Source: Candidatus Promineifilum breve (lineage in GTDB: Bacteria > Chloroflexota > Anaerolineae > Promineifilales > Promineifilaceae). Taken from it: a stretch of DNA of 64,000 bases. The stretch covers positions 3,760,726 to 3,824,725 of the forward strand of contig NZ_LN890655.1 in NCBI RefSeq assembly GCF_900066015.1, given 5' to 3'. Below are positions 20,007 to 24,394 of this stretch, in pieces. Both the position numbers and the translations under genes were made by a program. Within the stretch, counting starts at the first letter, position 1, and each line of letters starts with the position of its first letter. Below the pieces are notes generated by a model. That model was not told the DNA's origin. It did no database searches and saw nothing but the letters and a program-made list of their open reading frames with translations.

Positions 20007-20765
20007 ATGAGAATCTTAATCGCGGGCGAAATCCCGTTCATCGACGAAGTGGAACGCCTCTGCCGTCGCGCCGGCCACAACGTGCGCGTCTATCTGGTAG
20101 AAGATTTTCTGGGGGCGATGGAGGCCGAGATCGACGTGGCCCATCTGGCCGACGTGGAGATCGCCATTGAGCTGCACAACGAATCGGCGGCCACGAAGCA
20201 GGAACTGCTGACCGCCCTGAGCGCGGCCATACCCGCCGACGCGCTCATCCTGACCTCGGCCCTGGCGACCGGGGCGACGCAGGCCGCGGCCTGGACAAGC
20301 CATCCCGAACGGGTGGTGGGGTTTGCCGTGGTGCCGCCCGTGCCCGATGAGGGCATTGTGGAACTGGCCGTCGCCCTGCAAACCGAGGAACAGGCGCTGG
20401 TGCAGGCGGAGTTGTTCTGGCACGGCTTAGGGCAGGAGACGGTTATTGTGGCCGACGGGCCGGGTCTGGTGCGGGCGCGGACGGTCTGCTGCCTGATCAA
20501 CGAGGCCGCCGGCCTGCTATCGGAAGGGGTAGCCTCGGCCGAGGACATCGATCGGGCCATGCGCCTGGGCATGAACTTCCCCCACGGCCCGCTGGCCTGG
20601 GCCGACCAGATCGGCCTGGACGCGGTGCTGGGCGTGATGACCGGCTTGTTCAATGAGATGGGCGACGACCGCTATCGGCCGTCGCCCCTGTTGCGCCGCA
20701 TGGTGGCCGCGGATATGCTCGGCCGCAAGACCGGCCGCGGCTTCTATCCCTATGACGATGAATAA
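20007..20765 (+). CDS. 3-hydroxyacyl-CoA dehydrogenase-like protein with degenerate NAD site
   Basis: The C-terminal ~95 residues match the 3-hydroxyacyl-CoA dehydrogenase C-terminal domain: GLVRARTVCCLINEA, GMNFPHGPLAWADQIG and the end motif GRKTGRGFYPY. The N-terminal domain has a Rossmann-like outline but lacks the usual GxGxMG loop (it begins MRILIAGEIPFIDEV). Catalysis with NAD is therefore uncertain. At 252 residues it is shorter than typical 3-hydroxybutyryl-CoA dehydrogenase (~285). It follows the hydrolase gene by 12 bases, suggesting one operon. Confidence 0.8.
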   Translation: MRILIAGEIPFIDEVERLCRRAGHNVRVYLVEDFLGAMEAEIDVAHLADVEIAIELHNESAATKQELLTALSAAIPADALILTSALATGATQAAAWTSHPERVVGFAVVPPVPDEGIVELAVALQTEEQALVQAELFWHGLGQETVIVADGPGLVRARTVCCLINEAAGLLSEGVASAEDIDRAMRLGMNFPHGPLAWADQIGLDAVLGVMTGLFNEMGDDRYRPSPLLRRMVAADMLGRKTGRGFYPYDDE

Positions 20766-20778
20766 ACCGGCGGGATGC

Positions 20779-21054
20779 TTATAGCTCCTCCGGATATGGC
20801 TTCACGTCCGGGCCGATGAACGCCTGGAATAGAGCCAGCACCTCGCCCGGTTCGGCGTGGCGGCCGATGTCCTTCTTGGAGAAGAGTACCTGGTCATTAA
20901 CCGTGAATTTGAACACGCCCTTGCTGCCGGTGATGAACTCAAAGCGGCTGATGACGTGGTGATACCGGCTCATAATGTCGTCCGCCACACGGGCGGCACG
21001 GGGCCAGTAGTTTCAGGGGACGCAATATTCAAGGGTGATTTTGAGCGATTCCAT
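20779..21054 (-). CDS. Selenoprotein of the SelW/Rdx family (Sec encoded by UGA)
   Basis: Read through one in-frame UGA, this frame gives a 91-residue protein starting MESLKITLEYCVPUNYWPRA. The CVPU sequence (residues 11-14) is the CxxU redox motif at the position known for SelW/SelT/SelH (Rdx) proteins. The rest fits the same small thioredoxin-like fold: FEFITGSKGVFKFTVNDQVL, then FSKKDIGRHAEPGEV. The UGA is at 21015-21013 and is followed by a hairpin of SECIS type. The ATG at 21054 has an AGAGGT site five bases upstream and a good promoter. Without UGA readthrough only a 13-residue peptide, or a piece lacking the motif, would be made. Confidence 0.85.
20979..21000 (-). promoter_or_regulatory. 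Bacterial SECIS-like hairpin
   Basis: On the - strand the sequence after the UGA folds into a stem CCGCC/GGCGG with loop CGTGT, extended below by CGT/ACG past one bulged G. The loop starts 21 bases after the UGA and has G as its second base. Bacterial SECIS elements recognised by SelB have this placement and a loop guanine. No sequence match to a known SECIS was computed. Confidence 0.7.
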
Positions 21055-21093: not shown

Positions 21094-21122
21094 ATCTTAG
21101 ATGGAATGTGAATCGCCGTCAA
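21094..21122 (-). promoter_or_regulatory. Promoter of the selenoprotein gene
   Basis: On the - strand TTGACG (21122-21117) and TAAGAT (21099-21094) are spaced by exactly 17 bases. The expected start leaves a leader of about 33 bases ending in the AGAGGT ribosome-binding site. It stands back to back with the tRNA-Ala promoter. Confidence 0.7.
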
Positions 21123-21172: not shown

Positions 21173-21245
<73 letters not shown>

Positions 21246-21284
21246 CTGGACGGCGGGGCAAACGCCCCCGATGCAGCTTACAAT

Positions 21285-21600
21285 CGAAGAGATAAAGGCA
21301 GTGATCAGGAGTAGTAGGCGCGTAGGCTAGAGAGCCGCCCCACGGCTGAAAGGGTGGCAGCGGTCGCCGAACTCGCCTGAGAGCCGCGCCGGTGAAACAA
21401 ATAGCCGGTGCCGGATTACGCCCGTTACGCGTTAAAGTGGATGGTATGGGCCTGTAGCTCAATTGGGAGAGCGCCACAATGGCATTGTGGAGGTCAAGGG
21501 TTCGAACCCCTTCAGGTCCACTTTTGTACCGTCAATCAGAGTGGTACCGCGGAACCCCTTTCGTCTCTGAGCGAAAGGGGTTCTTTTGTTTTTCAGGCTA
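21285..21600 (+). promoter_or_regulatory. Leucine T-box leader of leuS, containing a tRNA-Ala gene
   Basis: Stem I begins near GATAAAGG at 21291. Its specifier loop has AGTA (21313-21316) on the 5' side and GAA (21369-21371) on the 3' side, flanked by pairs GGCG/CGCC above and CAGG/CCTG below. The codon after GAA is CTC (21372-21374), a leucine codon, matching the downstream gene leuS. The conserved CCCGTTA is at 21421. The T-box TGGTACCGCGG is at 21542-21552, with antiterminator stem CAGAG/CTCTG. The terminator hairpin AACCCCTTTCG/CGAAAGGGGTT lies at 21553-21582 and is followed by a T-rich tract. Uncharged tRNA-Leu should favour the antiterminator and leuS expression. A complete tRNA-Ala gene lies between the CCCGTTA and the T-box. 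Confidence 0.85.
21448..21520 (+). tRNA. tRNA-Ala (anticodon GGC), inside the leuS T-box leader
   Basis: A complete 73-base cloverleaf: acceptor GGGCCTG/CAGGTCC with G3:U70, D stem GCTC/GAGC, anticodon stem CCACA/TGTGG with loop ATGGCAT (anticodon GGC), T stem AAGGG/CCCTT around TTCGAAC. All stems pair, so it is not a relic. CCA is not encoded. It shares its acceptor and D-arm sequence with the tRNA-Ala(CGC) 200 bases upstream, so the two are related copies. Its position separates stem I of the T-box from the antiterminator. Confidence 0.95.
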
Positions 21601-21622: not shown

Positions 21623-24394
21623 ATGAGCGACAGTTACGATCCGGCAAGCATCGAACCGAAATGGCAGGCCCAATGGGAGGCCGACGGCCTGTACCGTTCG
21701 CAGGTCGATTGGACGCGGCCCAAGCATTACGCCCTGACGATGCTGCCCTACCCCAGCGGCGATCTCCACATCGGCCACTGGTTCGCCATGACCCCTTCCG
21801 ACGCGCGGGCGCGCTTCATGCGTATGCGCGGCTACAACGTGCTCTTCCCGATGGGCTTCGACGCCTTCGGGCTGCCGGCCGAAACCGCGGCCATCCAGCG
21901 CAACATCCACCCCAAGACGTGGACGTATGCCAACATCGAGCGGATGCGCCGCCAACTGCGCAGCATGGGAGCCATGTTCGACTGGCAGCGCGAGGCGGTT
22001 AGCTGCGACCCGGCTTACTACCGCTGGACGGAATGGTTCTTCACACAGTTGTACGACCACGCCCTGGCCTATCGCGGCGAGGGCATGGTCAACTGGTCGG
22101 AGACGTTGCAAACCGTGCTGGCGAACGAGCAGGTGATCGACGGCAAGGACGAGCGCACCGGCCAGCCGGTTATTCAAAAGTTGATGGAGCAATGGTTCTT
22201 CGCCATCACCCGCTATAGCGAGGAGCTGCTGAGCTACCCCGGTCTGGATTGGCCGGAGCCGGTCAAGCTGATGCAGACCAACTGGATCGGCCGCAGCGAG
22301 GGCGCGCGCGTCGTCTTCACCGCCGAGACGGGCGACGCCATCGAAGTCTTCACCACCCGGCCCGACACGCTCTGGGGGGCGACCTTCATGGTGCTGGCTC
22401 CGGAGCACGACCTGGTGGATCAACTGACGACCGAGGCCCAGCGCGCCGCCGTGACCGACTACCGCGCCCAGGCGGCCCGCGCCACGGAGATCGAGCGCCT
22501 GTCGGACACGCGCGAGAAGACGGGCGTCTTCACCGGCGGCTATGCCGTCAACCCGGTCAACGGGTCGCGCATCCCGGTGTGGATCGCCGACTACGTGCTG
22601 AGTTCCTACGGCACGGGGGCCATCATGGCCGTGCCCGCCCACGACCAGCGCGACTTCGATTTTGCCCGCCGCTATGGGCTGGCGATCATCCCTGTCATCC
22701 AGCCGGAAGGGGAGGCACTGGACGGGGCGACGATGGCCACGGCCTACGTCGGCCCCGGCGTCATGGTCAACAGCGCCCAATTCGACGGCACACCGGTGAC
22801 GGCGGCCAAGGGCTTCGCCAATCCGTCGGTCAACGCCGTGGGCGACTGGCTGGCGGCCGAGGGGCTGGGCGGCAAGTCGGTCAATTTCCGGATGCGCGAC
22901 TGGCTGATCAGCCGCCAACGCTATTGGGGTGCGCCCATCCCGGCCATTTACAGCGAGGATGGGTCGATTGCCATGACCCCCGACGCGCAACTGCCGGTGC
23001 TATTGCCCGATGACGTGGAGTTCATGCCCACCGGCCAAAGCCCGCTCCACTTCCACGATGGCTTCCTGCACACCGTCGATTCATCCGGCCGCCCCGCCCG
23101 CCGCGAGACTGACACGATGGACACCTTCATGTGCTCGTCGTGGTATCAATATCGCTATCTCAGCCCGCGCTACGAGGGCGGCCCATTCGACCCGGTCGAG
23201 GCGGCCTACTGGCTGCCGGTCGACGTCTACACCGGCGGGGCGGAACACGCCACGATGCATTTGCTCTACACCCGCTTCTTCACCAAGGCCATGCGCGACC
23301 TGGGGCTGTTCGCCGCGGCCGAGGCCGAGATGCGCGCCCACGGCCGCGACCCGCGCGGCCAATTCGACGAGCCGATGATCATGCTGCGCAACCAGGGCCA
23401 GATTTTGGGCGCGGCCATCAACGGCGACACCGTGCTGGCTCGCGGCCGGCGCGAGGGCAGCGTCCTGCTGGCCGAGCACGTGGCCGTGGTCGATGCCGCC
23501 GCCACGACGCCGGGGGTCGCTGATAACACCGTGTCGGGCGAGATTATGAAGCGCACCGAGAACGTATTACAGATCGACGCCGGCGGCGAGGAGTGGTTCA
23601 CTGTCGAGGTGACGCCTGGGGCCGAAGTCGACATTCCGTCCATCGAAGGCCACAACAATGTTAACCAGTTGCGCCAACATCTGGAAATCCAGCGCATGTC
23701 GAAGAGCAAGGGCAACGTGGTCAACCCCGACGAACTGGTGGCCCAATTTGGCGCGGACACGGTGCGCGCCTATCTGATGTTCTTCGCCAAGTGGGATCAG
23801 GGCGGGCCGTGGAACTATGGCGGCATCAAGGGGCCGCAGCGGCTGTTGCAGGACGTGTGGGAGATCGGCCGGGCCGAATACGCGCCGACGGCCGAAGACG
23901 ACGCGGCCAGCCGCGCCCTACGCCGCAAGACGCACCAGACCATCCGCAAGGTGACCCAGGACCTGGATGAATTCTCATTCAACACGGCTGTGGCCGCGCT
24001 GATGGAACTGCGCAACACCATCCTGGCCGCCCGGCGCGAGGCCAACGTCGGCCGCGCCGCCTGGGATGAGGCCGTCGATAGCCTGCTGCTGCTGCTGGCC
24101 CCCGTCTCGCCCCACATCACCGAGGAGCTATGGGCGCGGCGCGGCCGGCCCACTAGCATCCACCAGCAGGCGTGGCCGGCGTTCGATGAGACCATCGCCC
24201 GCGAGGAAGTGATCGAGCTGGTCATCCAGCTCAACGGCAAGACGCGCGACAAGATCGAGGTGCCGGCCGGGCTGAGCGAGGATGAGTTGCGCCGTGTGGC
24301 CCTGGAGTCAGAGAAGGTGCGGCGCATGCTCGACGGCCGGACGCCGCGCAAGGTCATCATCGCTCGCGGCAGCCTGGTCAATATCGTCGCCTGA
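21623..24394 (+). CDS. leuS: Leucine-tRNA ligase
   Basis: LeuRS charges tRNA-Leu. The 923-residue class I synthetase carries the HIGH motif in MLPYPSGDLHIGHWFAM (about residues 40-56), the CP1 editing domain in the middle, and the KMSKS-type loop RMSKSKGNVVNPDEL near residue 692. The C-terminal part ends with the usual RKVI-type segment. It is a little longer than the common ~820-860 residues, mainly through insertions before the KMSKS loop. It is controlled by the leucine T-box upstream. Confidence 0.97.
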   Translation: MSDSYDPASIEPKWQAQWEADGLYRSQVDWTRPKHYALTMLPYPSGDLHIGHWFAMTPSDARARFMRMRGYNVLFPMGFDAFGLPAETAAIQRNIHPKTWTYANIERMRRQLRSMGAMFDWQREAVSCDPAYYRWTEWFFTQLYDHALAYRGEGMVNWSETLQTVLANEQVIDGKDERTGQPVIQKLMEQWFFAITRYSEELLSYPGLDWPEPVKLMQTNWIGRSEGARVVFTAETGDAIEVFTTRPDTLWGATFMVLAPEHDLVDQLTTEAQRAAVTDYRAQAARATEIERLSDTREKTGVFTGGYAVNPVNGSRIPVWIADYVLSSYGTGAIMAVPAHDQRDFDFARRYGLAIIPVIQPEGEALDGATMATAYVGPGVMVNSAQFDGTPVTAAKGFANPSVNAVGDWLAAEGLGGKSVNFRMRDWLISRQRYWGAPIPAIYSEDGSIAMTPDAQLPVLLPDDVEFMPTGQSPLHFHDGFLHTVDSSGRPARRETDTMDTFMCSSWYQYRYLSPRYEGGPFDPVEAAYWLPVDVYTGGAEHATMHLLYTRFFTKAMRDLGLFAAAEAEMRAHGRDPRGQFDEPMIMLRNQGQILGAAINGDTVLARGRREGSVLLAEHVAVVDAAATTPGVADNTVSGEIMKRTENVLQIDAGGEEWFTVEVTPGAEVDIPSIEGHNNVNQLRQHLEIQRMSKSKGNVVNPDELVAQFGADTVRAYLMFFAKWDQGGPWNYGGIKGPQRLLQDVWEIGRAEYAPTAEDDAASRALRRKTHQTIRKVTQDLDEFSFNTAVAALMELRNTILAARREANVGRAAWDEAVDSLLLLLAPVSPHITEELWARRGRPTSIHQQAWPAFDETIAREEVIELVIQLNGKTRDKIEVPAGLSEDELRRVALESEKVRRMLDGRTPRKVIIARGSLVNIVA

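What the first reader, a model, noticed from the sequence alone, without database searches (positions are those of the whole stretch)
20779..21054. Selenoprotein of the SelW/Rdx family in a probable Chloroflexota genome
An in-frame UGA falls exactly at the second position of the family's CxxU motif (CVPU), the sequence on both sides fits the family, and a promoter, ribosome-binding site and SECIS-like hairpin are all in place. Ordinary annotation would call a truncated gene starting after the UGA. It implies that the organism has a selenocysteine system (selA, selB, selC, selD).
Basis: partly seen in the sequence, partly recalled or inferred. Interest (0 to 1): 0.8.

Follow-up and report, generated by a model that had tools for sequence, protein, structure and literature searches.

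The report
SelW-type selenoprotein in a Promineifilum-like bacterium
This short gene really does encode a small selenium-containing redox protein of a known family, missed by ordinary gene finding because its selenocysteine codon looks like a stop, and close relatives across its bacterial class carry it too.

Summary
On the minus strand, 21054..20779 reads as a 91-aa SelW/Rdx protein with one in-frame TGA (codon 14) as the U of CVPU. The 99.96%-complete genome carries tRNA-Sec, selA, selB and selD. In 148 relatives, 79 genomes hold 80 Rdx matches, 79 with exactly one TGA. Of the 80 genes read through, 79 have TGA and one TGT at this codon. A 5-bp hairpin starts 16 nt after the UGA: all five pairs are intact in 72 of 79 UGA genes, against 15.5 expected from synonymous recoding, with compensatory changes. 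The Cys gene in that set has 2 of 5 pairs. The predicted fold is SelW-like. SelW-like is a long-known bacterial selenoprotein family, so this is a new member of a known kind. New details: near-universal Sec use in Anaerolineae, kinship with Acidimicrobiia genes, a second SECIS register. In passing: a tRNA-Ala(GGC) gene nested inside the neighbouring leuS T-box leader, recurring in the family.

The parts
20779..21054 (-). selW-like gene, 91 aa plus TAA stop, read through one UGA
21013..21015 (-). in-frame UGA = selenocysteine codon 14, the U of CVPU
   Evidence: TGA in 79 of 80 homologues
20982..20996 (-). bacterial SECIS hairpin: 5-bp stem CCGCC/GGCGG, loop CGUGU with the invariant G; stem starts 16 nt and loop 21 nt after the UGA codon
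21061..21065 (-). Shine-Dalgarno-like AGAGG, 6 nt before the ATG
   Evidence: sequence
21094..21122 (-). sigma-70-like promoter TTGACG-17-TAAGAT
   Evidence: consensus match only
20779..20988 (-). the 69-aa GTG ORF that table 11 gives instead (truncated gene model)

Best explanation
The gene encodes a selenoprotein of the SelT/SelW/SelH (Rdx) family. During translation the UGA at codon 14 is read as selenocysteine by Sec-tRNA(UCA), delivered by SelB bound to the hairpin just downstream. SelA and SelD supply the Sec-tRNA and selenophosphate. The product is a 91-aa thioredoxin-like protein with a Cys-x-x-Sec redox motif at the end of its first strand; most likely it is a small cytosolic selenol/thiol oxidoreductase acting on peroxides or disulfides. 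Shown here by sequence: the gene, its purifying selection, the hairpin, the machinery and the fold prediction. Inferred: actual Sec insertion and the redox role. The cellular substrate is not known.
For: Rdx over cut-off with one TGA, single copy in the genome. Complete Sec machinery: tRNA-Sec 60.2 bits, anticodon TCA; selA 537.6 bits; selB 338.2 bits over its joined pieces; selD 373.3 bits with its own in-frame TGA. Relatives: 79 genomes of 148 with 80 Rdx matches, 79 carrying exactly one TGA, always at CxxU in those read (78 of 79 relatives' genes plus the window). Substitutions in 69 codons after the UGA are mostly synonymous against seven congeners (pN 0.13-0.23, pS 0.38-0.59), so the part after the 'stop' is under selection in frame. 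SECIS: 72 of 79 UGA genes form all five pairs, synonymous null 15.5, maximum 27 in 1000; 78 of 79 form it in one of two registers, null 20.6, maximum 35; loop G in 79 of 79; 4 of 5 pairs show double-sided changes, 19 cells against 1.9 in shuffles. The Cys copy has 2 of 5 pairs. Model pLDDT 96.3, best PDB matches are SelW-related proteins (2fa8, TM 0.80, rmsd 1.5-1.6). Five relatives at least 95% complete without selA over cut-off lack Rdx, 5 of 5.
Against: No expression, selenium or mass-spectrometry data. The single-gene hairpin is not significant by itself; mean folding z of the 48-nt region over 80 genes is only -0.46. Rdx and selA presence across the 148 genomes are not significantly associated (Fisher p 0.17): nine genomes carry Rdx without selA over its cut-off. 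All nine are at most 94% complete; tRNA-Sec at 62 bits or more is present in 8 of 9 (not G047) and selB over cut-off in 6 of 9. The equivalog model NF041051 is just missed (80.5 against 88 bits). Before the UGA only 12 codons can be compared, so selection there is less clear.
Confidence: 0.97

Rival explanations
1. The UGA is a true stop: the gene is a pseudogene, or only the 69-aa piece after it (GTG start) is made.
For: Table 11 gives that ORF, and many annotation pipelines would choose it (inference).
Against: UGA at the same codon in 79 of 80 genes read, from 54 genera, with an otherwise open frame; in-frame purifying selection after it; conserved hairpin. The truncated form would lack the CxxU motif and first strand, and the 35 nt ending in its GTG that were printed show no Shine-Dalgarno.
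Confidence: 0.01
2. UGA is read as another amino acid (such as Trp) by a changed code or general readthrough.
For: An in-frame UGA is clearly tolerated here.
Against: 9 of 32 long ORFs kept in the window end in TGA. selA and selB have no internal stop. The only non-UGA homologues read are Cys (1 of 80; 2 of 80). A tRNA-Sec with anticodon TCA exists.
Confidence: 0.01
3. Sec is inserted, but the hairpin used is another one, and the conserved pairing reflects codon bias for A-(V/A)-(R/S)-(V/L)-(A/T).
For: Shuffling codons among sequences that share the amino acid at the same column already gives 52.7 of 79 fully paired (maximum 63), since the columns are conserved.
Against: Observed 72 exceeds all 1000 of those shuffles too; 15.5 is expected from the genes' own codon usage; compensatory changes; loop G invariant and spacing within the range usual for bacterial SECIS (range recalled).
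Confidence: 0.02

Closest known systems
Bacterial SelW-like selenoproteins (CxxU), e.g. those listed for Geobacter, Desulfotalea, Alkaliphilus, Symbiobacterium (PMC1794560) and as the most numerous family in GOS (427 Sec, 56 Cys; PMC2398784)
   Same: Family, CxxU motif, UGA codon, predominance of Sec over Cys.
   Different: The passages read do not tie SelW to the Chloroflexi (that phylum has 3 selenoproteins in 3 families in the 2006 table). Here it is in 79 of 148 relatives searched, 79 of 80 matches with a TGA.
SelW of Epsilonproteobacteria (NF041051 SelTWH_Campy; PMC4607533)
   Same: 80.5 bits to the model; a 5/6-bp apical hairpin with an invariant loop G just after the UGA; SelW genes there were also missed by annotation (passages read).
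   Different: Just under the model's cut-off of 88; the sequence lineage is that of Anaerolineae and Acidimicrobiia.
SelW-related proteins of known structure (2fa8, 3dex, 2obk, 2oka, 2p0g)
   Same: Fold (TM mostly 0.72-0.80 by query length) and motif position.
   Different: Cys instead of Sec in the two alignments printed (3dex, 2fa8); 18-29% identity.
Mouse selenoprotein W (2npb)
   Same: Thioredoxin-like fold; CxxU (motif recalled).
   Different: Foldseek TM only 0.55; eukaryotic SECIS lies in the 3' UTR (recalled).

Membership tests
SelT/SelW/SelH (Rdx) family | Match to PF10262 and TIGR02174 over curated cut-offs | tested here: met
   54.1 vs 22.6 and 43.8 vs 34.2 bits
SelT/SelW/SelH (Rdx) family | CxxU/C redox motif after the first strand | tested here: met
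   CVPU at residues 11-14; strand 4-11, helix 17-34 in the model
SelT/SelW/SelH (Rdx) family | Thioredoxin-like SelW fold | tested here: met
   AlphaFold2 pLDDT 96.3; top PDB matches are SelW-related; a prediction
NF041051 SelTWH_Campy equivalog | Score over cut-off 88 | tested here: not met
   80.5 bits; so not filed under this narrower model
Bacterial selenoproteins | selA, selB, selC (tRNA-Sec), selD in the genome | tested here: met
Bacterial selenoproteins | In-frame UGA aligned with Cys/Sec of homologues | tested here: met
   79 TGA, 1 TGT of 80
Bacterial selenoproteins | SECIS hairpin just downstream of the UGA, G in the apical loop | tested here: met
Bacterial selenoproteins | Selenium in the protein | not testable with these tools
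   needs 75Se labelling or mass spectrometry

The most novel reading that the evidence does not exclude
This SelW subfamily is an almost obligate selenoprotein that has passed between Chloroflexota and Acidimicrobiia (Actinomycetota), and its SECIS hairpin exists in two registers four nucleotides apart. The late register dominates in Anaerolineae (72 of 79). The early one dominates in the non-Chloroflexota genes found (43 of 56) and appears alone in six Anaerolineae genes. A duplicated copy that changed Sec to Cys has lost the hairpin. It would be a natural series for how a SECIS moves within coding sequence and decays once Sec is lost.
Probability: 0.6. Interest if true: 0.45.

Novelty: new member of a known kind. 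Interest (0 to 1): 0.35.

Why it matters
It adds a broad clade (Anaerolineae, including Promineifilum and its family) to those where SelW is kept almost only as a selenoprotein. Gene models that stop or start at the UGA will miss its active site. The two hairpin registers and the Cys copy without a hairpin make SECIS evolution directly testable.

Tried and rejected
Folding energy of the 48-nt region as evidence for the SECIS: too weak (mean z -0.46; 8.75% of genes at p<=0.05), replaced by a position-specific helix test. Rdx/selA co-occurrence as a statistical test: not significant (p 0.17) because nine incomplete MAGs with Rdx lack selA over its cut-off; checked by tRNA-Sec and selB. The tRNA-Sec model alone is not specific: it rings in all 14 control genomes at E<=0.001 and over its cut-off in 5, so ARAGORN's call with anticodon TCA was used as well. 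Pseudogene, recoded code and truncated product were considered and rejected (see rivals). Phylum-wide search: 185 of 400 genomes have Rdx; outside the class both TGA and TGA-free rows occur among the rows listed; the list is cut and I did not count it. Paper searches. Passages were read by term search in PMC1794560, PMC4607533, PMC2398784 and PMC5029168; a term search in PMC5330540 found nothing; no whole paper was read. I found no text tying SelW to Anaerolineae in these, which says little as subscription journals are not held. The tree has 85 columns for 97 rows, so deep forks are unsure; only 18 Actinomycetota rows, chosen by hand from those, went in.

Full report
What is there. The finding gives no strand; the gene lies on the minus strand, 21054..20779. 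Read with TGA as U it is a 91-aa protein, ending in TAA, with the only in-frame UGA at codon 14 inside CVPU. Ordinary reading lists only a 69-aa GTG ORF after the UGA. Pfam Rdx (54.1 bits) and TIGR02174 (43.8 bits) are over their cut-offs; the narrower NF041051 is just missed. It is the only Rdx match in its genome.

Machinery. The genome (5.03 Mb, 3 contigs, 99.96% complete) has tRNA-Sec with anticodon TCA at C1:3848699-3848793, selA at C2:200918-202282, selB at C1:383247-385079 and selD at C1:377387-378316. The selD frame itself contains a UGA, in ...ASCAGUASKLAP..., so this genome has at least two predicted selenoproteins.

Relatives. A search of 148 relatives (own genome included) found Rdx in 79 genomes, 80 matches, of which 79 contain exactly one TGA. 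I read all 79 genes other than the window's (30 loci, 49): 78 have U at the CxxU position, one has Cys (L064, in a genome that also has a UGA copy, L075). With the window, the codon counts are TGA 79, TGT 1. Against seven congeners the 69 codons after the UGA show pN 0.13-0.23 and pS 0.38-0.59. Alignment A1 of 42 and a model with pLDDT 96.3 give the SelW fold; best solved neighbours are SelW-related proteins 2fa8, 2obk, 3dex, 2oka.

SECIS. In the window the stem CCGCC/GGCGG with loop CGUGU lies at 20996..20982. Over 79 UGA genes, all five pairs form in 72; the seven exceptions are L021, L039, L045, L049, L068, L085 and L102. Synonymous recoding from the genes' own codon usage gives 15.5 (sd 3.5, maximum 27 of 1000); shuffling codons among sequences with the same residue at the same column gives 52.7 (maximum 63). 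The loop G is invariant (79 of 79). The Cys copy has 2 of 5 pairs. On 77 aligned rows (74 distinct) 97.3% of cells pair, 4 of 5 pairs have double-sided changes, and no shuffle reaches the covariation score (0 of 500); sliding the partner by 1 to 3 columns gives 25-70%. Six of the seven exceptions form another five-pair hairpin four nucleotides earlier, so 78 of 79 have one of the two (null 20.6, maximum 35); 29 genes can form both. By free energy alone the region is unremarkable.

Tests that could have failed. Of 148 relatives, 125 have selA over its cut-off, and 70 of these 125 have Rdx. Nine of the other 23 have Rdx; all nine are 68-94% complete, and 8 of 9 have a tRNA-Sec at 62 bits or more, 6 of 9 a selB over cut-off; G047 (82% complete, about 1160 contigs) has neither. 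Overall association is not significant (p 0.17). The five genomes at least 95% complete without selA over cut-off have no Rdx and no selB over cut-off; two of them have a tRNA-Sec model match at 49-52 bits, just over the cut-off of 47, which I take for other long-arm tRNAs (inference).

Beyond the class. A scan of named genomes with the closer alignment A2 (patterns EYCVPC[ND]Y and [GK]RHA[ED]PGE[VI]; the first pattern can only hit Cys forms) kept 80 loci of 270: Promineifilum, Ardenticatenia, Anaerolineae and, unexpectedly, many Acidimicrobiia/Actinomycetota at 41-59% identity. 78 of 80 have UGA, 2 Cys; several Chloroflexota loci here are the same contigs as, so these counts overlap. Of 56 UGA loci that I assigned to non-Chloroflexota by title, 43 have the early register only, 3 the late, 10 neither in full. 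In a tree of 97 rows, the own family plus Actinomycetota form one side of a supported branch (97/84) apart from the other Anaerolineae, most sampled Actinomycetota fall beside own-family rows (95/86), and the two Cys genes L064 and L166 pair (99/91) inside Sec genes. I read this as transfer between the phyla and one Sec-to-Cys change, with moderate confidence given 85 columns.

How it works. Sec insertion by SelB and the hairpin is the established bacterial mechanism and everything it needs is present; insertion itself is inferred. A thioredoxin-like fold with CxxU points to a thiol/selenol redox enzyme; its substrate is unknown and I name peroxides or disulfides only as the likeliest.

Known or new. 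SelW-like is a known bacterial selenoprotein family: PMC1794560 lists it and notes few or no Cys homologues in Sec-containing organisms (passages); PMC2398784 counts 427 Sec and 56 Cys forms in ocean samples (passages); PMC4607533 describes SelW genes missed by annotation and the same type of short hairpin in Epsilonproteobacteria (passages). So this is a new member of a known kind. The extent in Anaerolineae, the tie to Acidimicrobiia and the two registers are additions.

In passing. Divergent to the gene stands a T-box leader for leuS (21292-21571, 94.4 bits) that encloses a complete tRNA-Ala(GGC). Its flanks can pair as the stem that the T-box model places there. In 14 of 21 relatives examined a T-box match spans a tRNA-Ala(GGC) in the same way, about 40-90 nt before the end of the match (in several the T-box score is under the Rfam cut-off). 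In the other 7 of the 21 no GGC tRNA was found in the stretch fetched, and some of those stretches end early. Two paper searches showed, in their listings, nothing on such an arrangement.

Noticed in passing
window 21292-21571 (+), with 21448-21521: A T-box leader before leuS (21623-24394) contains a whole tRNA-Ala(GGC) gene between the model's stem arms shortly before the antiterminator; a CUC (Leu) triplet follows the GAA of the specifier region (specifier position recalled). It is the only copy at 100% in its genome; the next best matches are 91% (the upstream neighbour, anticodon CGC) and 76%. In 14 of 21 relatives examined a T-box match spans a tRNA-Ala(GGC) in the same way. Cutting out the tRNA would split the riboswitch. 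This may be more novel than the finding given.
   Followed up: partly
window 21173-21246 (+): tRNA-Ala(CGC) directly upstream of the T-box and divergent from selW; the order selW / tRNA-Ala(CGC) / T-box with tRNA-Ala(GGC) recurs in relatives. In one relative (L217) the two tRNAs are about 3.6 kb apart.
   Followed up: partly
L051 (G000:C1:377387-378316): selD of this genome has an in-frame TGA (motif CAGUASK) and is itself a predicted selenoprotein.
   Followed up: partly
L064, L120 and L166: Cys forms of SelW (CVPC) without the full SECIS hairpin; L064 lies in a genome that also has a UGA copy (L075). L120 shows the same motif region as L064 from a named record. L064 and L166 pair in the tree inside Sec genes.
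   Followed up: yes
L122-L182 (Acidimicrobiia and other Actinomycetota among them): Close UGA-containing SelW genes in another phylum, with the hairpin shifted four nucleotides upstream in 43 of 56.
   Followed up: partly
window 20007-20765 (+): 252-aa 3-hydroxyacyl-CoA dehydrogenase-like protein; its matches to the single-enzyme models begin about 60-90 residues into them: a short N-terminus.
   Followed up: no
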